DNA from: Phalacrocorax aristotelis
Taxonomy: Eukaryota > Chordata > Aves > Suliformes > Phalacrocoracidae
DNA length: 64,000 nt
Assembly (NCBI RefSeq): GCF_949628215.1
Contig: NW_027441291.1
Span: 186,001 to 250,000 of the forward strand
Reading direction: 5' to 3'
Positions 1 through 17,487 of the stretch are shown piece by piece (positions within the stretch are counted from its first letter, which is position 1; every line of letters starts with the position of its first letter). The notes below the pieces were generated by a model. The model was not told the DNA's origin. It did not search any database and saw nothing but the letters and a program-made list of their open reading frames with translations. Both the position numbers and the translations under genes were made by a program.

Positions 1-3000
1 AGGGAACTAGGATGTACTGGGAGGAAACTGGAATGTCCCAGTTGACACCCACTTCCCTCCCAGTTTCCTCCCAGTATATCCCAGTTTCCTCCCAGTATAT
101 CCCAGTTTCCTCCCAGTACATCCCAGTGAATCCCAGTTCGCTCCCAGTACATCCCAATACATCGCCGTACATTCCAGTTCCGTTCCTGTACATCCCAATA
201 CATCCCCGTTCCATGCCAGTACATCCCAGTTTCCTACCAGTTCATCCCCGTACATCCCAGTTTCCTCCCGGTTCACTACCACTTCTTTCCCAGTGCCTCC
301 CAATACATCCCAGTTCCGTCCCATTACATCCCAGTACATCCCAGTTCCCTCCCAGTACGTCCCAGTTCCCTCCCAGTACATCCCAATTCCCTCCCAGTAC
401 TGGGAGGGAACTGGGATGTACTGGGAGGCACTACAATGTGCGGGGATGCCCTGGGATGTACTGTGGAGGAACTAGGAAGTACAGGCTTGTACTCGGTTGT
501 ACCAGGTGGAACTGGCAGGGATTTGGGATGTACCAGGATCTACTGGGATGTACTGGGATGTACTGGGAGGTAACTGTTGTGTACTGGGAGTGAACTGGTA
601 GGGAACTGGGATGTACTGGGAGGGAACTGGGACGTACTGTGAGGAGACTGGGATGTACTGGTATGTACTGGGAGGGAAGTGTTATGTACTGAGGGGAACT
701 GGGACGTACTGGGACGTGCTGGGAGCGAACTATGAAGTATTGGGATGTACTTAGAGGGAACTGGGATGTACTGGGAGGGAACTGGGAGGGAACTGGGAGG
801 GAACTGTGAAGTACTGGGATGTACTGGGAGGGAACTGGTATGTACTGGGAGGGAACTGGGATGTACTGGGTGGAAAGTGTTGGGAATTGGGATTTACTGG
901 GAGGGAACTGGGATGGACTGGGAGGGAACTGGGATGTAGTGGGACATACTGGGAGGGAACTGGGATGTACTGGGCTGTATTGGGAGGGAACTGTTATGTA
1001 CCGAGGGGGAACTGGGATGTACTGGGAGTGAACTGTGAAGTACTGGGATGTACTTAGAGGGAAGTGGGAGGGAACTTGGATGTAGTGGGAGGGAACTGGG
1101 GTTTACTTGGAGGAAAGTGGCATGTACTGGGATGTACTGGAATGGAACTGGGAGTGAACTGTGTGTGAACTGTGAGGGAACTGGGATGTACTGTGAGGGA
1201 ACTGGGATGTACTGGGATGTACTGGGACGGACTGGGAGGGAACTGGGATGTACTGGGAGGGATCTGGGATGTACTGGGCTGCACTGGTAGGGAGCTGGGA
1301 TGTACTGGGAGGAAACTGGAATGTCCCAGTTGACACCCACTTCCCTCCCAGTGCCTCCCAGTAAATCCCAGTTTGCTCCCAGTACATCCCAGTACATCGC
1401 AGTACATTCCAGTTCCGTTCCTGTACATCCCAATACATCCCAGTTCCGTCCCATTACATCCCAGTACATCCCAGTTCATCCCCGTACATCCCAATTCCCT
1501 CCCGGTTCACTACCACTTCTTTCCCAGTTCCGTCCCATTACATCCCAGTTCCGTCCCATTACATCCCAGCACATCCCAGTTCCCTCCCAGTACATCCCAG
1601 GTCCCTCCCAGTACATCCCAGGTCCCTCCCAGTACTGGGAGGGAACTGGGATGTACTGGGAGGCACTACAATGTGCGGGGATGCCCTGGGATGTACTGTG
1701 GAGGAACTAGGATGTACAGGCTTGTACTGGGTTGTACCGGGTGGAACTGGCAGGGATTTGGGATGTACCAGGATCTACTGGGATGTACTGGGAGGTAACT
1801 GTTATGTACTGGGAAGGAACAGGGAGGTAACTGGGATGTACTGGTAGGGAACTGGGATGTACTGGGAGGGAACTTGGACGTACTGTGAGGACACTGGGAT
1901 GTACTGGTATGTACTGGGAGGGAAGTGTTATGTACTGAGGGGAACTGGGACGTACTGGGATGTACTGGGAGGGAACTGTAAAGTACTGGGATGTACTGGG
2001 AGTGAACTGGGAGGGAACTGGTATGTAGTAGGATGTACTGGGTGGGAACTGGGATGTACCAGGATGTACTGGGATGTACTGGGAGGAAACTGGAATGTCC
2101 CAGTTGACACCCACTTCCCTCCCAATGCCTCCCAGTATATCCCAGTTTCCTCCCAGTATATCCCAGTTTCCTCCCAGTACATCCCAGTAAATCCCAGCTC
2201 GCTGCCAGTACATGCCAATACATCGCTGTACATTCCAGTTCTGTTCCTGTACATCCCAATACATCCCCGTTCCATGCCAGTACATCCCAGTTCCCTACCA
2301 GTTCATCCCCGTACATCCCAATTCCCTCCCGGTTCACTACCACTTCTTTCCCAGTTCCGTCCCATTACATCCCAGTTCCGTCCCAGGTCCCTCCCAGTAC
2401 ATCCCAGTTCCCTCCCAGTACATCCCAGTTCCCTCCCAGTACATCCCAGGTCCCTCCCAGTACTGGGAGGGAACTGGGATGTACTGGGAGGCACTACAAT
2501 GTGCGGGGATGCCCTGGGATGTACTGTGGAGGAACTAGGATGTACAGGCTTGTACTGGGTTGTACCGGGTGGAACTGGCAGGGATTTGGGATGTACCAGG
2601 ATCTACTGGGATGTACTGGGAGGTAACTGTTATGTACTGGGAAGGAACAGGGAGGTAACTGGGATGTACTGGTAGGGAACTGGGATGTACTGTGAGGGAA
2701 CTGGGACTTACTGTGAGGACACTGGGATGTACTGGTATGTACTGGGAGGGAAGTGTTATGTACTGAGGGGAACTGGGACGTACTGGGATGTACTGGGAGG
2801 GAACTGTGAAGTACTGGGATGTACTGGGAGTGAACTGGGAGGGAACTGGTATGTAGTAGGATGTACTGGGTGGGAACTGGGATGTACTGGGAGGGAACTG
2901 GGATGTACTGGGAGGGAACTGGGATGTACTGGGATGTAGTGGGAGGGAACTGGGAGGGAACTGGGATGTACTGGGAGGGAACTGGTATGTACTGGGAGGG

Positions 3001-6000
3001 AACTGGGATGTACTGGGACGTACTGGCAGGGAACTGGGATGTACTGGGAGGGGATTGGGACGGACTGGGAGGGAACTGGGATGTAGTGGGCTGCACTGGT
3101 AGGGAACTGGGATGTACTGGGAGGAAACTGGAATGTCCCAGTTGACACCCACTTCCCTCCCAGTGCCTCCCAGTATATCCCAGTTTCCTCCCAGTACATC
3201 CCAGTAAATCCCAGTTTGCTCCCAGTACATCCCAGTACATCGCAGTACATTCCAGTTCCGTTCCTGTACATCCCAATACATCCCCGTTCCATGCCAGTAC
3301 ATCCCAGTTCCCTACCAGTTCATCCCCGTACATCCCAATTCCCTCCCGGTTCACTACCACTTCTTTCCCAGTTCCGTCCCATTACATCCCAGTTCCATCC
3401 CATTACATCCCAGCACATCCCAGTTCCGTCCCAGTACATCCCAGGTCCCTCCCAGTACATCCCAGTTCCCTCCCAGTACTGGGAGGGACCTGGGATGTAC
3501 TGGGAGGCACTACAATGTGCGGGGATGCCCTGGGATGTACTGTGGAGGAACTAGGATGTACAGGCTTGTACTGGGTTGTACCGGGTGGAACTGGCAGGGA
3601 TTTGGGATGTACCAGGATCTGCTGGGATGTACTGGGAGGTAACTGTTATGTACTGGGAAGGAACAGGGAGGGAACTGGGATGTACTGGGAGGGAACTGGG
3701 ATGTACTGGGAGGGAACTGGGACTTACTGTGAGGACACTGGGATGTACTGGTATGTACTGGGAGGGAAGTGTTATGTACTGAGGGGAACTGGGACGTACT
3801 GGGATGTACTGGGAGGGAACTGTGAAGTACTGGGATGTACTGGGAGTGAACTGGGAGGGAACTGGTATGTAGTAGGATGTACTGGGTGGGAACTGGGACG
3901 TACTGTGAGGACACTGGGATGTACTGGTATGTACTGGGAGGGAAGTGTTATGTACTGAGGGGAACTGGGACGTACTGGGATGTACTGGGAGGGAACTGTG
4001 AAGTACTGGGATGTACTGGGAGTGAACTGGGAGGGAACTGGTATGTAGTAGGATGTACTGGGTGGGAACTGGGATGTACCGGGAGGGAATTGGGATGTAC
4101 TGGGAGGGAACTGGTATGTACTGGGAGGGAACTGGGATGTACTGGGATGTAGTGGGAGGGAACTGGGAGGGAACTGGGATGTACTGGGAGGGAACTGAGA
4201 TGTACTGGGAGGGAACTGGGATGTACTGGGACATACTGGCAGGGAACTGGGATGTACTGGGAGGGGATTGGGACGGACTGGGAGGGAACTGGGATGTACT
4301 GGGCTGCACTGGTAGGGAACTGGGATGTACTGGGAGGAAACTGGAATGTCCCAGTTGACACCCACTTCCCTCCCAATGCCTCCCAGTATATCCCAGTTTC
4401 CTCCCAGTATATCCCAGTTTCCTCCCAGTACATCCCAGTAAATCCCAGCTCGCTCCCAGTACATCCCAGTACATCGCAGTACATTCCAGTTCCGTTCCTG
4501 TACATCCCAATACATCCCCGTTCCATGCCAGTACATCCCAGTTTCCTACCAGTTCATCCCCGTACATCCCAATTCCCTCCCGGTTCACTACCACTTCTTT
4601 CCCAGTGCCTCCCAATACATCCCAGTTCCGTCCCATTACATCCCAGTACATCCCAATTCCCTCCCAGTACATCCCAGGTCCCTCCCAGTACATCCCAGGT
4701 CCCTCCCAGTACTGGGAGGGAACTGGGATGTACTGGGAGGCACTACAATGTGCGGGGATGCCCTGGGATGTACTGTGGAGGAACTAGGATGTACAGGCTT
4801 GTACTGGGTTGTACCGGGTGGAACTGGCAGGGATTTGGGATGTACCAGGATCTACTGGGATGTACTGGGAGGTAACTGTTATGTACTGGGAAGGAACAGG
4901 GAGGTAACTGGGATGTACTGGTAGGGAACTGGGATGTACTGTGAGGGAACTGGGACTTACTGTGAGGACACTGGGATGTACTGGTATGTACTGGGAGGGA
5001 AGTGTTATGTACTGAGGGGAACTGGGACGTACTGGGAGGGAACTGTGAAGTACTGGGATGTACTGGGAGTGAACTGGGAGGGAACTGGTATGTAGTAGGA
5101 TGTACTGGGTGGGAACTGGGATGTACTGGGAGGGAACTGGGATGTACTGGGAGGGAACTGGTATGTACTGGGAGGGAACTGGGATGTACTGGGATGTAGT
5201 GGGAGGGAACTGGGAGGGAACTGGGATGTACTGGGAGGGAACTGGGATGTACTGGGAGTGAACTGGTATGTAGTAGGATGTACTGGGTGGGAACTGGGAT
5301 GTACCAGGATGTACTGGGATGTACTGGGAGGGAACTGGTATGTACTGGGAGGGAACTGGGATGTAGTGGGAGGGAACTGGGAGGGAACTGGTATGTACTG
5401 GGAGGGAACTGGGATGTACTGGGACATACTGGCAGGGAACTGGGATGTACTGGGAGGGGATTGGGACGGACTGGGAGGGAACTGGGATGTACTGGGAGGG
5501 AACTGGGACGTACTGTGAGGTCACTGGGATGTACTGGTATGTACTGGGAGGGAAGTGTTATGTACTGAGGGGAACTGGGACGTACTGGGATGTGCTGGGA
5601 GGGAACTGTGAAGTACTGGGGTGTACTTAGCAGGAACTGGGAGGGAACTGGGATGTAGTGTGATGTACTGGGAGGGAACTGGCATGTACTGGGATGTACT
5701 GGAATGGAACTGGGAGTGAACTGTGTGTGAACTGTGAGGGAACTGGGATGTACTGGGAGGGAACTGGCATGTACTGGGATGTACTGGAATGGAACTGGGA
5801 GTGAACTGTGTGTGAACTGTGAGGGAACTGAGATGTACTGGAGGGAACTGGGATGTACTGGGATATACTGGAGGGAACTGGAATGGACTAAGAGGGAACT
5901 GGGACGTACTGGGAGGGAACTAGGACGCACTGCTAGGGAACTGGGACGGAACTGGGATGTACTGGGACGTACTGGGAGGGAACTGGGACGTACTGGGAGG

Positions 6001-6902
6001 TAACTGTTGTGTACTGGGAGTGAACTGGGAGGGAACTGGTATGTAGTAGGATGTACTGGGAGGGAACTGGGATGTACTGGGACGGAGTGGGAGGGAACTG
6101 GGATGTACTGGGATGGAACTTTGAAGTACTGGGACGTACTTAGAGGAAACTGGGAGGCAACTGGCATGTACTGGGATGTACTGGAATGGAACTGGGAGTG
6201 AACTGTGTGTGAACTGTGAGGGAACTGGGATGTACTGGGAGGGAACTGGGACGGACTGGGAGGGAACTGGGACGGACTGGGAGGGAAATGGGATGTACTG
6301 GGCTGCACTGGTAGGGAACTGGGATGTACTGGGAGGAAACTGGAATGTCCCAGTTGACACCCACTTCCCTCCCAGTGCCTCCCAGTATATTCCAGTTTCC
6401 ACCCAGTATATCCCAGTTTCCTCCCAGTACATCCCAGTAAATTCCAATTTGCTCCCAGTACATCCCAGTACATCGCAGTACATTCCAGTTCCGTTCCTGT
6501 ACATCCCAATACATCCCCGTTCCATGCCAGTACATCCCAGTTTCCTACCAGTTCATCCCCGTACATCCCAATTCCCTCCCGGTTCGCTACCACTTCTTTC
6601 CCAGTGCCTCCCAATACATCCCAGTTCTGTCCCATTACATCCCAGTACATCCCAGTTCCCTCCCAGTACATCCCAGGTCCCTCCCAGTACATCCCAGTTC
6701 CCTCCCAGTACTGGGAGGGACCTGGGATGTACTGGGAGGCACTACAATGTGCGGGGATGCCCTGGGATGTACCGTGGAGGAACTAGGATGTACAGGCTTG
6801 TACTGGGTTGTACCGGGTGGAACTGGCAGGGATTTGGGATGTACCAGGATCTACTGGGATGTACTGGGATGTACTGGGAGGTAACTGTTATGTACTGGGA
6901 AG
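1..6902. repeat. Strand-switching G/C-skewed satellite, block 1
   Basis: Tandem array of a 10-bp monomer (ACTGGGATGT) and an 11-bp monomer (ACTGGGAGGGA), usually alternating as a 21-bp composite, with many single-base variants. The array changes strand repeatedly. G-rich runs on the plus strand end at a junction containing GAATGTCCCAGTTGACACCC (near 30, 1320, 2097, 3133, 4347 and 6345), followed by ~310-370 bp of the complementary C-rich units. It then returns to the G-rich strand through the perfect palindrome CCCTCCCAGTACTGGGAGGG, centred near 398, 1633, 2461, 3477, 4710 and 6709. About 30 bp after each palindrome lies a conserved, less repetitive ~110-bp core (e.g. 427-536). Superunits are thus ~0.8-2.0 kb. 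Long reading frames here are by-products of the 21-bp period; no gene is supported. Confidence 0.95.
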
Positions 6903-8343: not shown

Positions 8344-8403
8344 GTCTTGTGAGAAACTGAACTAAGGTATTGTTTATTAAGACTTATGTTAAAGCTCAAT
8401 GTA

Positions 8404-8684
8404 AAGCATGCGAAGAATACCTCCCAGGCGTGCTTATGCAAGATAACCATCAGATGTCCAAACTTATCGACAGAGATAAGACAAGCAACCCCATATCACC
8501 AGGAAGCAGGAAACGACCCCCTAACAACAACTGAAGCATGCGAAGAATACCTCCCAGGCGTGCTTATGCAAGATAACCATCAGATGTCCAAACTTATCGA
8601 CAGAGATAAGACAAGCAACCCCATATCACCAGGAAGCAGGAAACGACCCCCTAACAACAACTGAAGCATGCGAAAAGTACCTCC
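8404..8684 (+). repeat. 130-bp duplicated U3 enhancer-like unit (2.15 copies)
   Basis: The unit starting AAGCATGCGAAGAATACC occurs at 8404 and 8534, with a third, truncated copy from 8664 (AAGCATGCGAAAAGTACC). The two full copies look identical and both are repeated in the 3' LTR (17026-17306). Direct repeats at this position in retroviral U3 commonly act as duplicated enhancers; that function is inferred. Confidence 0.9.
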
Positions 8685-8714
8685 ACTATCTCATTGAACA
8701 TGGAAGTAAAGATG

Positions 8715-8720
8715 TATAAA
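8715..8720 (+). promoter_or_regulatory. TATA box of the ERV1 5' LTR
   Basis: TATAAA inside GATGTATAAAGAGAG, just downstream of the U3 repeats and ~100 bp upstream of the polyadenylation signal, the expected order U3-R. Confidence 0.85.
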
Positions 8721-8868
8721 GAGAGACTGTTTGAACTGCTCAGTACGGCAGTTGGCGGAGCGCAGACTCCCCTGCCGTCCAGCGCTGTATTTGCTCATAT
8801 TCTACTTGCTACAATTAATAAAATTCTAATTGGATTATGATCCATTGTGGTCTAAATTTATGACAATT

Positions 8869-8886
8869 TGGTGCCGTGACTCGGAT
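8869..8886 (+). other. Primer binding site, tRNA-His type
   Basis: TGGTGCCGTGACTCGGAT begins three bases after the LTR end. It is the complement of the 3' end of vertebrate tRNA-His, the same primer type known from the HERV-H group. Confidence 0.9.
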
Positions 8887-9261
8887 AAGGAACGGTGAGC
8901 TTCTGTCCTCCGGGGAGGCGCCCCGCGGCAATCCGCGGCCCCGCGACCGACAGCTTACCTCAACCTTACCGACGAACCTAAATTCTAGAATGATGAGCAA
9001 AGGAGAAACCGGTAAAATCCCATAAAAATTCTGTGCACGGGAGTCCGGACGAAGACGCAGGGCGCGTAAGTATATGGCGAATTTGTTCGCGGGTTTACCG
9101 TTCGGGCGGGATTGGGTTTCCTGGAATATAACGAGTGAGAGGTTCGCTATATTGAACCAGGCGAGTGCGGACCCTTAAGTACTGCGTTTCCCATCTCCCG
9201 CGAGGGACTGGGCCAGGAACAAGGGGAACGAGTGAGTGCGCGCTTGTGGATATTCCAGAAG
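8887..9261 (+). other. ERV1 leader with candidate splice donors and packaging region
   Basis: Untranslated leader of ~375 bp between primer site and gag. Two good donor-like sequences are visible: CG|GTGAGC at 8894/8895 and CGC|GTAAGT at 9065/9066, the second matching the full GTAAGT consensus. One of them probably feeds the spliced env RNA. The packaging signal is expected here by position; no specific structure was established. Confidence 0.6.
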
Positions 9262-10680
9262 ATGGGGGCGAAGGGCAGCAAGCCTTCGACTCCCATGGGA
9301 AAGGTACCCACTGTACCTAAGAATACCCCTCTGGCATATATCCTAGACAATTGGAGATATTTCCCTGGAACCCTAGGGAAAGATAAACAGAAAATGATAA
9401 AATATTGTACTAGGATATGGGGAGGGAAGAAGATTTCTAAAGATGACGTTTGGCCAGTCTATGGGTCAGAAGAGGATTGGGTCAGACAACAATTAAACCT
9501 CTGGGTTAACAATAAAAAACCCCTTAACCCAGAAGAGAGTCAGTATGCGGAAGTGTGGCTAGAAAGACCGAGAGCTAGACTTTATCCACTGAATGAAGTA
9601 AAAACTGAACAAAAGAAAAAGAAGGAAGAGTTAGACGAAACCCTTCTAAGCCCCCCTCCCTATATTTCTCCTCCTGCTCCCGCAGCCCCTTCAGAGGTCC
9701 CCAGAGCACCCACTCCCCCACCAGAATCGGAACAAGGGTCTCCCCCTCCTCCTAGACGCGTAACTAGGAGTCAAAAAGGGGCAGCTCAGATGTATCCTTT
9801 AAGGGAAATGCCCATGGGGGGACCCCAACCTGTGATTGGATATATTTTTGTGCCCCTAAGTTCGGCTGACCTACGAGATTTTAAAAGAACTGAGATGGGA
9901 AACCTAATTGAAGACCCACTCGGAGTGGCAGAAAGATTAGATCAATTTTTGGGACCAAATCTTTATACTTGGGATGAGATGCAATCTATCCTTGGTCAAT
10001 TATTTACTACCGAGGAAAGAGATATGATCAGGCGAGCAGGAATGAGACTGTGGGATGCTCAGCATGCCCAGGGACCCCAAGCAGATATTAAATGGCCACT
10101 CCAAAGACCTAATTGGGATAATCAGGATCCGGTGCATAGAACTCATATGCAGGACCTGAGAACTATAGTAATTCAAGGGATTAGAGAAGCAGTACCCCGT
10201 GGCCAGAATATCAATAAAGCATTTAATGAAATACAAAAGAAAGATGAGAGCCCTACTGAGTGGCTGGAACGACTGAGGAAAGCCCTTCAGCTGTATTCTG
10301 GGGTAAATCCAGACAACCCTTTAGGGCAAGCGCTCCTCAAAACTCAGTTTGTGGCAAAATCATGGGAAGATATCAGAAAGAAGATTGAAAAGTTAGAGGA
10401 CTGGCAGAATAGAGGGTTGGATGAATTATTGAGGGAAGCTCAGAAAGTCTACGTAAGGCGGGAAGAAGAGAGCAGCAAGCGACAAGTAAAAATGATGGTA
10501 GCAGCAGTCAGAGAGGATCGCAAAGGGCGGACTGGTGAACACAGATCTGCTGGAACGAAACAAGGGAACGTGGTAGTAAAGAAGGAACAGAGATGTTGTT
10601 TTTACTGTGGAAAGAAGGGACATATAAAGACGAATTGCAGAGAAAGGATCAGGGATGAGGAAATATTAAAAACGGAATAG
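9262..10680 (+). CDS. gag: Gag polyprotein (MA-p12-like-CA-NC), ERV1
   Basis: 472 residues ending in TAG. The start is the ATG at 9262 because it gives Met-Gly with Ser at position 6, an N-myristoylation signal for membrane targeting; a GTG ten codons upstream is rejected. Matrix covers about residues 1-120 and includes the gammaretroviral WP motif (W64-P65). A proline-rich segment follows, with late-budding motif PPPY at 131-134. Capsid begins near residue 187 (GGPQPV) and contains a major-homology-like stretch around 320-345. A charged helix (about 370-415) precedes a single zinc knuckle C446-X2-C-X4-H-X4-C459. Gag would assemble immature particles at the plasma membrane. No break is seen. 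One knuckle and a PPPY argue for a gammaretrovirus. Confidence in identity is very high; processing sites are inferred. Confidence 0.96.
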   Translation: MGAKGSKPSTPMGKVPTVPKNTPLAYILDNWRYFPGTLGKDKQKMIKYCTRIWGGKKISKDDVWPVYGSEEDWVRQQLNLWVNNKKPLNPEESQYAEVWLERPRARLYPLNEVKTEQKKKKEELDETLLSPPPYISPPAPAAPSEVPRAPTPPPESEQGSPPPPRRVTRSQKGAAQMYPLREMPMGGPQPVIGYIFVPLSSADLRDFKRTEMGNLIEDPLGVAERLDQFLGPNLYTWDEMQSILGQLFTTEERDMIRRAGMRLWDAQHAQGPQADIKWPLQRPNWDNQDPVHRTHMQDLRTIVIQGIREAVPRGQNINKAFNEIQKKDESPTEWLERLRKALQLYSGVNPDNPLGQALLKTQFVAKSWEDIRKKIEKLEDWQNRGLDELLREAQKVYVRREEESSKRQVKMMVAAVREDRKGRTGEHRSAGTKQGNVVVKKEQRCCFYCGKKGHIKTNCRERIRDEEILKTE

Positions 10681-10753
10681 GAGAGTCAGGGGCTCTATAT
10701 CTTAGGGGACCGGAGTCATCATGAGCCCTTGATAAAATTAAAAATAGGTCCCC
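10678..10753 (+). promoter_or_regulatory. UAG readthrough signal with H-type pseudoknot between gag and pol
   Basis: The gag stop TAG (10678-10680) is followed by an 8-nt purine-rich spacer (GAGAGTCA), then stem 1 GGGCTC (10690-10695) pairing with GAGCCC (10723-10728), extendable by a G-U pair. The loop of stem 1 holds GGGGACC (10705-10711), which pairs perfectly with GGTCCCC (10747-10753), making stem 2. Reading frame is kept and stays open. This is the architecture of the known murine leukaemia virus readthrough element, including the 8-nt spacer; here it is read directly from base pairing. Confidence 0.88.
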
Positions 10754-13700
10754 ATAAACAAGAGTTCACCTTTTTAGTAGACACTGGGGCTGAGAAATCG
10801 ACTATTAGGCAAATACCTGAGGGATGTAAAGTTTCCCCTGAAAAGGTACAAGTAATTGGGGCAAAAGGAGAACCCTTTAAAGTAAGCAAAATCAAAAATG
10901 TGGTATTCGAAACTGAAAATAAATTTGGAATGGGTGAACTCTTGCTCGTCCCTGAAGCAGAATTTAATCTGTTAGGACGAGATTTAATTGTTGAATTGCA
11001 ATTAGAAATTAAAGTAAAAAATCAAGAGCTAACGGTGTCTGCTTATCCTTTGACCGTAGATGATCAAAAACAAATTAACCCCGATGTCTGGTACTCTCCG
11101 GATACAATAAGTAAACTGGAAATCCCACCGATTAAAATTCAAATTTCCGAACCCCACATACCTGTGAGGATAAGGCAATATCCCATATCCCTAGAAGGAC
11201 GGAGAGGATTGAAACCAGAAATTGATCGATTATTAGCACAAGGAATCTTAGAGCCTTGTATGTCACTCTTTAACACTCCCATTTTGCCTGTAAGGAAGCC
11301 AAATGGGAAATATCGGCTCGTACATGATTTAAGGGAAATAAACAAAAGAACTATCACCCGGTTCCCTGTAGTAGCAAATCCATACACACTGCTAAGCAAG
11401 CTAGGACCCCATAACTCCTGGTATAGTGTGGTTGATTTAAAGGATGCCTTTTGGGCCTGTCCACTGGCAGAAGAATGCCGTGATTATTTTGCCTTTGAAT
11501 GGGAAGACATAGAGACAGGCCGCAGACAGCAATTGAGATGGACCGTGCTCCCCCAAGGGTTCACTGAGTCCCCTAACCTGTTTGGACAGGCCCTGGAAGA
11601 GATCTTAAAAGAATACCAGGTACAAACGGGAAATGTGCTGTTACAGTATGTAGATGATCTACTCATAGCAGGGAATAATAAGAAGGATGTAAGAAAAGAA
11701 ACCATTCGACTTCTAAACTTTTTTGCACAACAGGGACTACGGGTATCACAAGAAAAGTTACAATTTGTGGAGGAAAAAGTGAAATATTTGGGGCATTATT
11801 TGTTTAACGGCAAGAAGATATTGGATCCGGAGCGCATTAAGGGAATTCTGGAATTACCTATGCCTGTCACTAAGAGGCAAATTCGACAAGCATTAGGGCT
11901 ATTTGGGTATTGTAGACAATGGATAGAGAATTACAGCTTTAAAGTTAAATTCTTGTATGAACAACTGTCTAAAGACAAAATACCCAAGTGGACCCCTCAG
12001 GATCAAGATCAGTTTATCAGCCTCAAAAGGGAGTTAAGTCAAGCACCGGTTTTAAGCCTCCCAGATCTAAAGCGGCCATTCCATTTATTCGTTAACATAC
12101 ATGAAGGAACAGCATTCGGAGTATTAACTCAGGAATGGGCGGGACAAAAGAAACCAGTAGCATACTTATCAAAGCTGTTGGATCCTGTGAGCAGGGGTTG
12201 GCCAAGTTGTTTACAAATCGTTGTTGCTGCTGCCTTATTACTTGAAGAAACGAATCGTATTACCTTCAATGGGGAAGTTGTCCTATATGCGCCTCATAAC
12301 ATAAGGGGGGTGCTTCAACAAAAAGCAGAAAAATGGCTTACAGATAGCCGACTACTAAAGTATGAGGGAATACTCATAGAATCTCCAAAACTGTCCCTAA
12401 GGACTGTCGGAGCGGTTAACCCTGCAGAATTTTTATACCCAGGGGAAAGTACTGAGTTAATACACGATTGTCTTCAAACGATTGAACAACAAACACGAAT
12501 TCGACCAGATCTAGAAGAAGAGGAATTACAACATGGAGAAATAATTTTTATAGATGGGTCATCTCGAATAGTGGAAGGTAAACGATTGTCAGGGTATGCC
12601 ATCATTAAGTTGGATAAAGGAGAATTTAGGACAATAGAATCGGGCCCCCTGAGTGCCAGCTGGTCGGCTCAAGCCTGTGAGCTGTACGCATTGTGGAAAG
12701 CCTTAGTGTCACTGAAGGGAAAGGATGGAACTATATATACAGACTCACGCTATGCGTTCGGAGTAGTACATACCTTTGGGAAAATATGGGAGGAGAGAGG
12801 ATTTGTTAACTCACAGGGAAAAGAACTGATACACCCAGAATTAATTCGGCGAGTTCTGGGGGCATTGAAAATACCAAATAAAATAGCAGTTGTACATATA
12901 AAGGGACACCAGCGAGGCACGAGTTATCAAGTTAGAGGAAATAATGCAGCTGATACAGAAGCAAAACGAGTAGCAGGCAATTATAGTACGATTTTGACTA
13001 TGCAGCAAGTACCTGTTAGTAATAATTTGAGTTTTGAGTCTGCAGAAAAGGAAAAACTAGAACAAATGGGAGCTAAGGAACAAGATGGTAAGTACATATT
13101 GCCAGATGGGAGAGAAGTCTTGCCGAAGGGCATAGCACTCGAAATCTTTTCAAAAATACACAGTAAAACACACTGGGGAACCCAGGCGTTAGTTGATCAT
13201 TTCAATCAACAGTTTGCCTGTATAAGCGTATATAACATAGCAAAGGCAGTCACTGCAGCCTGCGAGACCTGTCAAAAGGTTAATCGAAACAACATGAGAC
13301 GAAAACCTCTTGGAGGACGTTCCCCAGCATACAGACCTTTCTCACACATACAAGTGGATTTTACTGAACTACCCAGGGTAGGGCGTTACAAATATTTATT
13401 AGTGATGGTGGATCATTTAACACATTATGTTGAGGCTTTTCCTACCTCTAAAGCAACTGCTAACCAAGTTACTAAGGTATTACTTGAACATATTATATCT
13501 CGATATGGAGTACCCGATGTAATCGATTCAGACAGAGGAACACACTTTGTGTCAAAAATTGTTAGAAATCTAACAGGAAGTTTAGGTATTAAGTGGGAAT
13601 ATCATACGCCATGGCATCCACAAAGTTCGGGAAAAGTTGAAAGGATGAACGGAGAAATCAAAACTATTTTGACTAAATTAATGATAGAAACCAAATTATC

Positions 13701-14163
13701 ATGGGTTAAGTGCCTACCCATGGCACTATTAATTCTCAGAACCAGGCCCCGAGCAGATGTAGGGATATCAGCGTTTGAACTGGTGTATGGAATGCCCTAT
13801 AGAATCGAAAGTCCACAAACAAATGTTTTAATTCGAGATCATGTGATTAATGAATATGTTTCACAATTAGCAGAACATCGTAACAAGCTTTGGGAACATG
13901 GACTAATTGTGCAACGACCCCCATTGGACTTAAAAATTCACAATTTTAAACCTGGGGACTGGATATTGGTTAAAACGTGGAAAGAAGAAACCCTAAAACC
14001 CAATTGGGAGGGACCTTATCTTGTTTTGCTTACAACAGAAACAGCTGTCCGGACTGCTGAGCGTGGATGGACTCATGCCAGTCGCATTAAAGGCCCAGTG
14101 ACGAGACCCCACTGGAAAGTAATCAGTACTCCAGGTGACACCAAGATAACTCTGAAAAGATAA
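10681..14163 (+). CDS. pol: Pol (protease, reverse transcriptase, RNase H, integrase), ERV1
   Basis: 1,160 codons in the gag frame, open from the first codon after the UAG, so it is made as Gag-Pol by readthrough. In order: aspartic protease with DTGA (Asp codon 10780); reverse transcriptase with YVDD (11647-11658); RNase H with acidic residues at codons 12553, 12679, 12742 and 12952; integrase with zinc motif H13159-X3-H13171 and C13261-X2-C13270, then the catalytic triad D13357, D13531, E13639 (35 residues between the last two) and a C-terminal GPY motif at 14011. Together these copy genomic RNA into DNA and insert it. All catalytic residues are present with no frameshift, unlike the second provirus in this window. 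Integrase does not overlap env, which is unusual for a simple gammaretrovirus. Confidence 0.97.
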   Translation, partial: ESQGLYILGDRSHHEPLIKLKIGPHKQEFTFLVDTGAEKSTIRQIPEGCKVSPEKVQVIGAKGEPFKVSKIKNVVFETENKFGMGELLLVPEAEFNLLGRDLIVELQLEIKVKNQELTVSAYPLTVDDQKQINPDVWYSPDTISKLEIPPIKIQISEPHIPVRIRQYPISLEGRRGLKPEIDRLLAQGILEPCMSLFNTPILPVRKPNGKYRLVHDLREINKRTITRFPVVANPYTLLSKLGPHNSWYSVVDLKDAFWACPLAEECRDYFAFEWEDIETGRRQQLRWTVLPQGFTESPNLFGQALEEILKEYQVQTGNVLLQYVDDLLIAGNNKKDVRKETIRLLNFFAQQGLRVSQEKLQFVEEKVKYLGHYLFNGKKILDPERIKGILELPMPVTKRQIRQALGLFGYCRQWIENYSFKVKFLYEQLSKDKIPKWTPQDQDQFISLKRELSQAPVLSLPDLKRPFHLFVNIHEGTAFGVLTQEWAGQKKPVAYLSKLLDPVSRGWPSCLQIVVAAALLLEETNRITFNGEVVLYAPHNIRGVLQQKAEKWLTDSRLLKYEGILIESPKLSLRTVGAVNPAEFLYPGESTELIHDCLQTIEQQTRIRPDLEEEELQHGEIIFIDGSSRIVEGKRLSGYAIIKLDKGEFRTIESGPLSASWSAQACELYALWKALVSLKGKDGTIYTDSRYAFGVVHTFGKIWEERGFVNSQGKELIHPELIRRVLGALKIPNKIAVVHIKGHQRGTSYQVRGNNAADTEAKRVAGNYSTILTMQQVPVSNNLSFESAEKEKLEQMGAKEQDGKYILPDGREVLPKGIALEIFSKIHSKTHWGTQALVDHFNQQFACISVYNIAKAVTAACETCQKVNRNNMRRKPLGGRSPAYRPFSHIQVDFTELPRVGRYKYLLVMVDHLTHYVEAFPTSKATANQVTKVLLEHIISRYGVPDVIDSDRGTHFVSKIVRNLTGSLGIKWEYHTPWHPQSSGKVERMNGEIKTILTKLMIETKLSWVKCLPMALLILRTRPRADVGISAFELVYGMPYRIESPQTNVLIRDHVINEYVSQLAEHRNKLWEHGLIVQRPPLDLKIHNFKPGDWILVKTWKEETLKPNWEGPYLVLLTTETAVRTAERGWTHASRIKGPVTRPHWKVISTPGDTKITLKR

Positions 14164-14167
14164 CGTA

Positions 14168-14293
14168 ATGATAAGAACTTTAGTTGATTATTTTGCCGCA
14201 TTACCTTTTGGTATAAAGTGTATATTGCTGTTTATATTTGCTATAATTATCTTTTTTAATCTATTATATATGGAAGCGTACGAAGTGTGTTGA
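14168..14293 (+). CDS. Small membrane-peptide reading frame between pol and env
   Basis: 41 codons from ATG (14168), four bases after the pol stop, to TGA (14291-14293). Residues about 18-34 form an uninterrupted hydrophobic stretch able to span a membrane; the short N-terminal part carries Arg3 and Lys17, and the C-terminal part is short and acidic. No family is recognised. It is in the same frame as the Cys-rich frame that follows directly after its TGA. It could be a free-standing tiny membrane protein, the N-terminal part of a larger accessory protein whose frame is broken by the TGA, or chance. Position between pol and env argues for an accessory gene expressed from spliced RNA. Function unknown. 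Confidence 0.4.
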   Translation: MIRTLVDYFAALPFGIKCILLFIFAIIIFFNLLYMEAYEVC

Positions 14294-14575
14294 AGGAAAT
14301 TGCTAAACTTATGTAGTAACACAATATTGAATATAGAGGAAAAGCTAATAAGCACTTTAGATACACAAATTAGATGCAATCATTTGAACTGCGATTGTTA
14401 TCCATTTGCTCGTTGCAAGTGTAAGGTATGCCAGGATAAATGGTGGACACACTGTGAATATGGATACCCTCCGATAGGAGTTTGCACACAGTGTTGGAAA
14501 ATCCAAAGAACTCTCACTGAGTGGAAATTAAAAACAATTAGAGTCGGAACAAGAAATTATTCGAGGATCCCATGA
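14294..14575 (+). CDS. Cys-rich reading frame between pol and env, no in-frame ATG
   Basis: Open from 14294 (directly after a TGA) to TGA at 14573-14575, about 93 codons, with no in-frame ATG; the first near-cognate start is TTG at 14300. It encodes ten cysteines; the eight in the core are spaced C-X4-C-X-C-X5-C-X-C-X2-C-X7-C-X9-C-X2-C if the last pair is included, suggesting a metal-binding or disulfide-rich fold. The C-terminal third is basic (Lys/Arg rich). No homologue is recognised. Expression would need splicing onto an upstream start, readthrough of the TGA at 14291, or non-AUG initiation. Simple gammaretroviruses have no gene here, so an accessory role is conceivable, but decay of a former gene is equally possible. 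Confidence 0.4.
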   Translation, partial: RKLLNLCSNTILNIEEKLISTLDTQIRCNHLNCDCYPFARCKCKVCQDKWWTHCEYGYPPIGVCTQCWKIQRTLTEWKLKTIRVGTRNYSRIP

Positions 14576-14801
14576 ATGGTGGAAAGTTTTGCCAAAGGAA
14601 TAAACCCTTAGTATTATTGTTACCATTCCAACGAATCAATCCCCTTTGTGGTTGAAATTTTGGCTACAAAGTGCAGAAGGGAAGTACTAGCTGTGTCTTG
14701 CTTAGTCTCATTAGTTAAAGCTGCAAAGTGGGAGGCCTATATAAACAGGCAGAAAGCCTGAAACAGCTGTTCTCCTGAAGATTTCCCTTGCTGCCAAGAA
14801 G
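14576..14801 (+). other. Spacer upstream of env with TATA-like element
   Basis: 226-bp stretch without a supported gene. It holds a TATATAAA at 14738-14745, 57 bp upstream of the env ATG, in a context (GGCCTATATAAACAGGC) resembling a promoter, and a pyrimidine run (TTTCCCTTGCTGCC) before CAAGAAG that could serve as the env splice acceptor. Neither use is demonstrated. Confidence 0.45.
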
Positions 14802-16934
14802 ATGGTACACCCCGTGGCTCGAAGCAACCGAGTCGACGGGCGAGGCAGAGGAGGAACAAACTGTGGAGAAAAGAACCAGAACAATGAGGCGCAAGAGCAG
14901 CTATGGTCGAACTTCCCCAAGACTGGTAAAAGTGTACTTAAATTGGAAAAATTGACAGACACCCTTTTTCCTGGTATATCGTTAGTTTTATTATCGATAA
15001 TAGCCCAAACAAATGGAAAAGGAAACCCTCATGAACCCATGAATTGGACAATAATAAACATACAATATCCAAATAAGCCAATCCAAGCACAAATTATGGA
15101 GGGGGGAACAGTTAGTTTCAATATAAGTTTGCGTTACTTAATCGATGGAGAAATGGATAAGAATTGCAAGCCAATTTATATATGCCCAGCATCGAACCCT
15201 GGTAAATCATATTGTAATCGTCCAGACCATTATTATTGTGCATACTGGGGATGCGAAACATGGGCCTCTGAATGGTCTGCATCTGGAGATCAAAATCTAG
15301 AAATCAAATGGTCACCACAAATATGTCAAAAGAGAAATTGGAGCTACACAGATAGTTACTATAATGGTACATGTAATCATAAAGATATTGGATGTACAGG
15401 CATTAATATAACCATAAAAGATCCTAGTCAGGACTTCTGGCTTGTAGGAAAATTTTGGGGAATTAGATATTACGAACAAGGTGTAGATAGAGGGGGTATT
15501 TTTCAAATTATGAAGAAACCGATGCCCCACGATCCTTTGCCAATAGGACCAAATCTGGTCCTGAATCCGCTCACTTCCTCTGAAGAAAAGATGGCCCCCG
15601 TAATTGTCATAACCCCTTCCTCAGGCTCTCCTTCGAAAACAACTAATGATGCTGTGACTGAATTCTCTTTATCCAGAGATCTAGAGTTGTCAGAACCCAA
15701 GGACCCCTTATGGAATCTAATGCAAGCCTCTTATCGTGCCCTTAATGAAAGCAAACCAAATTTAACTGAAGAATGCTGGTTATGTTATAATATTAGACCA
15801 CCATATTTTGAGGCAGTTGGAAAACCAGGTATGATTCGATGGTCTAATGGTTTAAACCCACAAGAATGTCAATGGGATGACCAGAAGAATCATACGCAAG
15901 GAATTACTATTCAATTAGTAACGGGTCAGGGAAAATGTATAGGCACAGTGCCCGAAAAGTATCAGCCTTTGTGCAGCCGAATAGTCACTAACACCAATAT
16001 AGAGAAACACAAAAATAAAAAGGACAAATGGGCTATCCCGACACCAGGAGCTAAATGGGTTTGTTCAGACATCGGAATAACGCCTTGCCTATCCTTGAAC
16101 GTGTTTAATGAATCTCAGTTTTGCATACAGGTGATTATTGTTCCTCGCCTAATCTATCACACCTCTGAGGAGGTGCTACGCCACTTTGAAGGAAACCTGA
16201 ATAGACAAAAACGAGAGCCAATTACGGCAGTAACCCTAGCTACACTGCTGATAGCGGGTGGAGTTGGAGCAAGTACAGGCATAGCCTCCCTGGTAAAAGG
16301 TCAGGAGTTGCAAAATTTGCAGATGGCTGTAGATGAGGATTTAGCAAAAATAGAGCAATCTATTCAAAATTTAGCCACTTCAGTAAAATCTTTATCAGAA
16401 GTGGTGCTGCAAAATAGGAGAGGATTAGACCTATTGTTCTTAAAGGAAGGAGGGTTATGCGTAGCTCTCAATGAAGAATGTTGTTCGTTTGCTGACCATA
16501 CGGGAGTAGTCCAAGACACCATGTCTGAACTCCGGAAAAGGTTAGAACAACGTAAAAAAGATCGTGAAGCGGGCAAGTTATGGTATGAAAGCTGGTTTAA
16601 TGTTTCACCTTGGCTAACCACTTTGTTGTCTGCTTTAGCAGGACTGCTTATTATGTTGATTCTGGGACTTATATTTGGACCTTGTATATTACGCTGTATT
16701 TTACATTTTATTAAAGAACGGTTTGACCCAGCTAAATTGCTTATTTTGACTACAAGGTCTGAAGCAAAATATAAGAGTGTATCTATTAATGAAGATGACG
16801 ATTGTTGTGAATGCATTATGCCACATAAGAACTATGATTGTAATTGTGAGATATTACCTTGTGAGTGTTATGATAAATGTCGGAATTGTGGAAGAAGATT
16901 TGCCTGCAGTGCCGAAAATGAAAGTAGTGTCTAA
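14802..16934 (+). CDS. env: Envelope glycoprotein (SU-TM), ERV1
   Basis: 710 residues, ATG to TAA, unbroken. The first ~52 residues are polar and basic; the hydrophobic signal core is at about 55-68, so the leader is long for a signal peptide. Surface subunit: several N-glycosylation sites (e.g. N81, N107, N179, N315, N436), a PIGPN-type linker near 247, a proline/serine-rich segment, and CWLC at 325-328. Furin-type site RQKR at 468-471. Transmembrane subunit: hydrophobic fusion peptide from 472, heptad region, the conserved segment preceding CX6CC (C553 to C560-C561), and a membrane anchor at ~604-628. The cytoplasmic tail is ~80 residues with ten cysteines between 668 and 702, which is odd. 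CXXC plus CX6CC marks a gamma-type covalently linked Env. It would bind receptor and fuse membranes; the receptor is unknown. Confidence 0.96.
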   Translation: MVHPVARSNRVDGRGRGGTNCGEKNQNNEAQEQLWSNFPKTGKSVLKLEKLTDTLFPGISLVLLSIIAQTNGKGNPHEPMNWTIINIQYPNKPIQAQIMEGGTVSFNISLRYLIDGEMDKNCKPIYICPASNPGKSYCNRPDHYYCAYWGCETWASEWSASGDQNLEIKWSPQICQKRNWSYTDSYYNGTCNHKDIGCTGINITIKDPSQDFWLVGKFWGIRYYEQGVDRGGIFQIMKKPMPHDPLPIGPNLVLNPLTSSEEKMAPVIVITPSSGSPSKTTNDAVTEFSLSRDLELSEPKDPLWNLMQASYRALNESKPNLTEECWLCYNIRPPYFEAVGKPGMIRWSNGLNPQECQWDDQKNHTQGITIQLVTGQGKCIGTVPEKYQPLCSRIVTNTNIEKHKNKKDKWAIPTPGAKWVCSDIGITPCLSLNVFNESQFCIQVIIVPRLIYHTSEEVLRHFEGNLNRQKREPITAVTLATLLIAGGVGASTGIASLVKGQELQNLQMAVDEDLAKIEQSIQNLATSVKSLSEVVLQNRRGLDLLFLKEGGLCVALNEECCSFADHTGVVQDTMSELRKRLEQRKKDREAGKLWYESWFNVSPWLTTLLSALAGLLIMLILGLIFGPCILRCILHFIKERFDPAKLLILTTRSEAKYKSVSINEDDDCCECIMPHKNYDCNCEILPCECYDKCRNCGRRFACSAENESSV

Positions 16935-16950
16935 TAAACAATAATAGGAT

Positions 16951-16969
16951 AAAAAGAAAAAGGGGGGAT
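16951..16969 (+). other. ERV1 polypurine tract
   Basis: AAAAAGAAAAAGGGGGGAT immediately precedes the 3' LTR start at 16970. It is the purine primer for plus-strand DNA synthesis and fixes the LTR boundary. Confidence 0.93.
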
Positions 16970-17487
16970 TGTGAGAAACTGAACTAAGGTATTGTTTATT
17001 AAGACTTATGTTAAAGCTCAATGTAAAGCATGCGAAGAATACCTCCCAGGCGTGCTTATGCAAGATAACCATCAGATGTCCAAACTTATCGACAGAGATA
17101 AGACAAGCAACCCCATATCACCAGGAAGCAGGAAACGACCCCCTAACAACAACTGAAGCATGCGAAGAATACCTCCCAGGCGTGCTTATGCAAGATAACC
17201 ATCAGATGTCCAAACTTATCGACAGAGATAAGACAAGCAACCCCATATCACCAGGAAGCAGGAAACGACCCCCTAACAACAACTGAAGCATGCGAAAAGT
17301 ACCTCCACTATCTCATTGAACATGGAAGTAAAGATGTATAAAGAGAGACTGTTTGAACTGCTCAGTACGGCAGTTGGCGGAGCGCAGACTCCCCTGCCGT
17401 CCAGCGCTGTATTTGCTCATATTCTACTTGCTACAATTAATAAAATTCTAATTGGATTATGATCCATTGTGGTCTAAATTTATGACA
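16970..17487 (+). repeat. ERV1 3' LTR
   Basis: 518 bp, offset exactly 8,622 bp from the 5' LTR and identical to it as far as can be read by eye, including both 130-bp U3 units. TATAAA at 17337-17342 and AATAAA at 17439-17444, the signal that would end viral transcripts. Followed by the target-site duplication GTCT (17488-17491). Confidence 0.97.

What the first reader, a model, noticed from the sequence alone, without database searches (positions are those of the whole stretch)
14164..14575. Possible new accessory gene between pol and env: membrane peptide plus Cys-rich domain in one frame split by TGA
Simple gammaretroviruses run pol directly into env, but here ~640 bp separate them. The gap holds an ATG-started 41-codon frame with a clear hydrophobic segment, and in the same frame directly after its TGA a ~93-codon frame with ten cysteines and no ATG. 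The same-frame arrangement suggests a single membrane-anchored Cys-rich protein whose frame is interrupted (recoding, or a recent nonsense change), or two peptides, the second from spliced RNA. Neither half is recognised.
Basis: partly seen in the sequence, partly recalled or inferred. Interest (0 to 1): 0.88.

Follow-up and report, generated by a model that had tools for sequence, protein, structure and literature searches.

The report
Bird retrovirus with broken extra gene
Between the pol and env genes of a recently inserted retrovirus, very probably in a bird genome, lies a broken copy of a small cysteine-rich gene that is intact in a related virus, so this group of retroviruses probably carried an extra gene unlike known ones; it is not the single membrane protein split by a TGA that was first proposed.

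Summary
The frames are there, in a young gamma-like provirus (8348-17487; LTRs identical over 518 of 518 bases; gag, pol and env open). The Cys-rich stretch is a real coding relic: a protein search found an intact 128-aa relative of unnamed origin, P0050 (E = 1.5e-32), and predicted budgerigar (P0015) and sparrowhawk (P0017) proteins begin with the same gene's start. P0050 and P0015 share nine cysteines at one spacing; P0050 has no significant match in Pfam or among solved structures. The window's copy is broken: two frame changes and a stop in its 3' half, no start codon in the Cys frame, and, if the weakly matching start region is placed correctly, two stops right after the old start codon. 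The relatives start at their own ATG, so one protein split by TGA is not supported. Whether the 41-codon hydrophobic frame is a gene is unresolved. Best reading: a lineage-specific accessory gene, probably zinc-binding, already lost in a lineage that could still insert. Function is inferred. No relative's DNA could be fetched, so no dN/dS, and whether the TGA is conserved was not tested.

The parts
8348..17487 (+). gamma-like (class I) provirus
   Evidence: identical 518-base LTRs, flanking GTCT on both sides; Pfam matches of gag, pol and env
8348..8865 (+). 5' LTR
   Evidence: 518 of 518 identical to the 3' LTR
9262..10680 (+). gag, ending in TAG, in frame with pol
   Evidence: Gag_p30 E=9.8e-31; 472 codons without internal stop, stop TAG
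10681..14163 (+). pro-pol
   Evidence: RVP, RVT_1, RNase_H, rve, MLVIN_C; 1160 codons without stop
14168..14293 (+). 41-codon hydrophobic frame, status unresolved
   Evidence: no convincing relative among the 50 fetched proteins
14311..14349 (+). probable remnant of the accessory gene's start region, with two stops right after the ATG
   Evidence: weak matches of the starts of P0050, P0015 and P0017 in this frame (E 0.64, 0.09 and 0.017 in a search of the gap alone); translation
14348..14530 (+). Cys-rich core of the broken accessory gene (ends approximate)
   Evidence: 48 of 58 residues identical to P0015; P0050 pieces placed in this frame
14530..14700 (+). rest of the broken accessory gene, two frame changes and a stop at 14609-14611
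   Evidence: end approximate
14802..16934 (+). env, with a long Cys-rich tail
   Evidence: TLV_coat E=1.8e-113; 710 codons without internal stop
16970..17487 (+). 3' LTR

Best explanation
The Cys-rich stretch is the broken copy of a real accessory gene of a group of bird gamma-like retroviruses. In intact form the gene has its own ATG in the pol-env gap and encodes about 128 residues with a nine-cysteine core. Shown: protein homology, conserved cysteine spacing in two relatives, a similar predicted start in three, and damage in this copy while gag, pol, env and both LTRs are intact. Inferred: the protein binds zinc, has no membrane segment (by eye; GRAVY -0.66), is made from a spliced RNA, and acts as an adaptor or antagonist toward a host protein. 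Because the parent element could still insert with the gene broken, it is more likely an auxiliary factor than an essential regulator of the Tat or Rev kind. The 41-codon hydrophobic frame is a separate matter.
For: P0050, 128 aa, E = 1.5e-32. Budgerigar P0015 residues 17-74, 48 of 58 identical to the window; P0050 to P0017 start 19 of 23; P0050 to P0015 41 of 70; the window's core is as similar to P0015 (82.8%) as the Env parts are (84.2%, 362 of 430); nine cysteines at one spacing in P0050 and P0015, eight of nine in place in the window. Frame changes and stops confined to this gene: at least three firm lesions, six if the start region is placed right, against none in 7026 bases of gag, pol and env. 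Ten Cys in such a frame: 0 of 2000 shuffles.
Against: One intact full-length relative only, of unnamed origin; P0015 and P0017 are gene predictions fused to env. Finch P0047, and weakly budgerigar P0014, use out-of-frame stretches of this region. The start-region match is weak, and an ungapped placement of P0050's first 16 residues prefers the Cys frame at 14321 with a low score. No dN/dS. No function, expression or fold evidence; the structure model failed (mean pLDDT 32.3). The database searches with the window's own piece found nothing.
Confidence: 0.72

Rival explanations
1. The Cys-rich protein is still made in this provirus, from a spliced RNA that enters the open Cys frame with a start codon taken from an upstream exon; the gene was remodelled, not lost.
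For: The core frame is open for 93 codons, 1% of shuffles, and keeps eight of nine cysteines.
Against: The frame changes and the stop in the 3' half remove the conserved C-terminal part; one core cysteine is displaced; no strong acceptor site was seen upstream of the core (a crude scan).
Confidence: 0.12
2. One reading: a single membrane-anchored Cys-rich protein over 14168-14575, interrupted by a TGA that is read through or is a recent nonsense change.
For: The two frames share a phase; the 41-mer is unusually hydrophobic.
Against: The three relatives start at their own ATG downstream of any such segment; the Cys frame's end at 14573 lies in a frame-shifted stretch.
Confidence: 0.05
3. The region derives from a duplication of Env's membrane segment and Cys-rich tail.
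For: Weak hits of Env membrane segments and tails across 14180-14446 (E 0.009 to 0.08).
Against: Core against Env tail scored no better than 6%, 28% and 1% of shuffled tails for three Envs; P0050's start and C-terminal parts have no counterpart in Env.
Confidence: 0.05
4. Non-coding sequence with chance frames.
For: This copy has stops and no usable start.
Against: Protein-level relatives with conserved cysteine spacing.
Confidence: 0.03

Closest known systems
Gammaretroviruses and gamma-like (class I) endogenous retroviruses
   Same: Gag_p30, TLV_coat Env, MLV-type integrase end; gag and pol in one frame parted by TAG; 4-base duplication.
   Different: An extra gene between pol and env; a long Cys-rich Env tail, where gammaretroviral tails are typically 25-35 residues (PMC9967133, passage).
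Accessory and regulatory genes between pol and env in complex retroviruses (lentiviral vif, tat and the like; positions recalled)
   Same: Genome position, small size, Cys-rich product.
   Different: No significant sequence match to Pfam or to solved structures; no arginine-rich stretch seen in P0050 (by eye).
GATA-type zinc fingers (spacing recalled)
   Same: C-x2-C-x17-C-x2-C at Cys 40, 43, 61 and 64 of P0050 (positions).
   Different: No Pfam zinc-finger match up to E = 10; further cysteines in the core.

Membership tests
Gamma-like class I provirus | Gamma-type Env and MLV-type Gag and integrase | tested here: met
   TLV_coat 1.8e-113, Gag_p30 9.8e-31, MLVIN_C 1.3e-12
Gamma-like class I provirus | gag and pol in the same frame with a stop between | tested here: met
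   TAG at 10678-10680
Gamma-like class I provirus | Simple genome, no gene between pol and env | tested here: not met
   638-base gap holding a relic homologous to P0050; the literature describes few if any accessory genes (PMC9967133, passage)
Lentiviral Tat or Vif type protein | Sequence homology | tested here: not met
   P0050: Pfam best DUF7279 E=0.19; solved structures best E=0.66, RNF216
Lentiviral Tat or Vif type protein | Transactivation, or removal of a restriction factor | not testable with these tools
   needs experiments
GATA-type zinc finger | C-x2-C-x17-C-x2-C spacing (recalled) | tested here: met
   Cys positions in P0050 and P0015
GATA-type zinc finger | Profile match | tested here: not met
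Protein with stop-codon recoding at the TGA | TGA conserved in relatives with coding on both sides | not testable with these tools
   no relative's DNA found; the genome search unanswered

The most novel reading that the evidence does not exclude
Bird gamma-like retroviruses carried a two-gene accessory module between pol and env, a small membrane peptide and a zinc-binding host antagonist, which is kept during spread between animals and discarded once a lineage multiplies within the germline.
Probability: 0.12. Interest if true: 0.85.

Novelty: new variant of a known kind. Interest (0 to 1): 0.6.

Why it matters
Retroviruses with gamma-type Env are described as having few if any accessory genes (PMC9967133, passage). 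A Cys-rich gene between pol and env, related in viruses of a parrot and a hawk and without a match to profiled families, would make at least one bird lineage of them complex. Comparing lineages that keep it with lineages that lost it would test which functions a retrovirus sheds when it becomes endogenous.

Tried and rejected
Led nowhere: scans for DNA relatives in viral contigs and genome contigs, with no locus confirmed in any; the protein search with the window's own 93-codon piece; Pfam and solved-structure searches, no significant match for the 41-mer (Pfam only), the 93-codon piece or P0050; AlphaFold of P0050 in a four-row alignment (mean pLDDT 32.3), so no fold search was run and the second job was not used. 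Comparison of the gap, gag, pol and env with the window itself found no second copy.

Rejected or put low: recoding at the TGA; a duplication of Env's tail; a chance frame. No splice acceptor was assigned; one search lists weak candidates from a crude scan. A TATA-like site was not followed up.

Literature: ten searches, of which I saw the listings, several cut at 15 to 25 rows, and passages of six papers (PMC9967133, PMC4299795, PMC4272516, PMC2717909, PMC10536682, PMC3185748). I saw no report of this gene there. Two papers on bird retroviruses with gamma-type env are not held, and subscription journals are mostly missing, so it may be described elsewhere.

Full report
Setting. The finding lies in a full-length provirus, 8348-17487. 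Its two LTRs are identical over 518 of 518 bases, GTCT stands on both sides, and a primer site follows the 5' LTR (that it fits tRNA-His is recalled). No difference between the LTRs bounds the age at about 0.9 to 1.5 million years for assumed rates of 3.3e-9 and 1.9e-9 per site and year (the rates are recalled). Gag, pol and env have no internal stop in 472, 1160 and 710 codons and are gamma-like by Pfam. A search with Env gave 49 proteins (only the 8000 candidates sharing most words were scored). The host is therefore very probably a bird, though it was not identified.

Observation. The 638-base gap, the 41-codon frame, the TGA and the 93-codon Cys-rich frame are as described. By dinucleotide shuffles the Cys count is the most unusual (0 of 2000), then the hydrophobicity of the 41-mer (0 to 0.25%), then the length of the open frame (1%).

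Finding relatives. The window's own 93-codon translation found nothing. Among the 49 Env relatives, the budgerigar protein P0015 begins with a stretch of which 48 of 58 residues equal the Cys core, before the gene prediction goes on into env; the sparrowhawk protein P0017 begins with a short start and goes on into env. A small alignment of these two pieces with the window's piece then found one protein, P0050: 128 residues, E = 1.5e-32, three member sequences, one contig of 4704 bases, source 'lgn' without organism (the search needs shared words, so others may be missed). P0050 begins MQLNIEYRKYTE, P0017 MQLNIEYRRYTE and P0015 MQPHNIKYRRYV; P0050 runs on through the Cys core to a C-terminal part that also matches the window.

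The window's copy. P0050 matches the window over 14327-14677 at 52% of 123 columns. Placing P0050 piece by piece puts the core in one frame to about 14530, the next stretch in another frame to about 14585, and the rest back in the first, with a stop at 14609-14611. These three lesions are firm. The start is less so: the starts of P0050, P0015 and P0017 match the frame of the ATG at 14311 only over short stretches (E 0.64, 0.09 and 0.017 in a search of the gap alone), and an ungapped placement prefers the Cys frame at 14321 with a low score. If the first placement is right, two stops follow the old ATG at once and a third frame change leads into the core, six lesions in all; if not, the Cys frame still lacks any ATG between the TGA at 14291 and the core. 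Against this stand none in 7026 bases of gag, pol and env. Were lesions spread evenly after insertion, the chance that all fall in these 390 bases would be about 1.5e-4 for three (my arithmetic from the lengths), 8e-6 for four and 2e-8 for six. I infer that the gene was already broken in the parent element; help in trans from other copies cannot be excluded.

The relatives' gene begins at its own ATG, so the 41-mer is not its first half, and the shared frame is best taken as chance. No recoding is needed. The 41-mer itself stays unexplained: it is unusual by shuffles, and its only hits among the 50 fetched proteins are weak ones to Env membrane segments.

Conservation. The core's identity to budgerigar (82.8%) is like that of the Env parts of the same protein (84.2%, 362 of 430). 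P0050 to P0015 is 58.6% (41 of 70), like the Env parts of P0017 and P0015 (59.6%, 229 of 384); P0017 is a stand-in, since P0050's own Env is not known. So the gene changed about as slowly as Env. Nine cysteines hold one spacing in P0050 and P0015, the two relatives that cover the core; the window keeps eight in place and has one displaced. Against: finch P0047, and weakly budgerigar P0014, use out-of-frame stretches of this region, as decayed copies or prediction errors would. Synonymous change could not be counted.

Mechanism. Inferred: a small zinc-binding adaptor acting on a host protein, made from a spliced RNA. The loss in a lineage that could still insert argues against an essential Tat- or Rev-like regulator. 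I put about 0.4 on adaptor or antagonist of a host protein, 0.2 on a transcriptional regulator and the rest on other roles. No fold supports this, as the model failed.

Literature. [quoted passage not shown] A survey of 48 birds reports beta- and gamma-related elements as the most abundant in all genomes and does not use the word accessory (PMC4272516, passages). A review describes bird elements with gamma-type pol and env in work that I could not read (PMC10536682, passage; not held). In crocodilian elements extra genes were captured from host mRNAs (PMC4299795, passages); I found no host relative of P0050 by Pfam or solved structures, but no search of host proteomes as such was made.

Noticed in passing
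14802-14850: Env begins with an arginine-rich leader (HPVARSNRVDGRGRG) before the likely signal peptide; a pattern for it is found in 10 of the 50 fetched proteins, also in Envs only about 45% identical. It recalls the Env leaders of betaretroviruses that act on RNA export (recalled).
   Followed up: partly
16750-16931: Env has a long Cys-rich cytoplasmic tail; 10 of the 50 fetched proteins have eight or more Cys in their last 45 residues. Similarity to the accessory core is not beyond shuffles for two of three Envs, 1% for the third.
   Followed up: partly
14738: A TATA-like site (TATATAAA) 64 bases before the Env ATG, possibly an internal promoter; no chance test was made.
   Followed up: no
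8404-8684 and 17026-17306: Both LTRs hold a 130-base unit in 2.2 copies, an enhancer-like duplication.
   Followed up: no
1-6700 and 33000-64000: The flanks are a degenerate minisatellite (GTACTGGGAGGGAACTGGGAT type) whose strand flips near 44.6 kb, seen in GC skew and in inverted matches.
   Followed up: no
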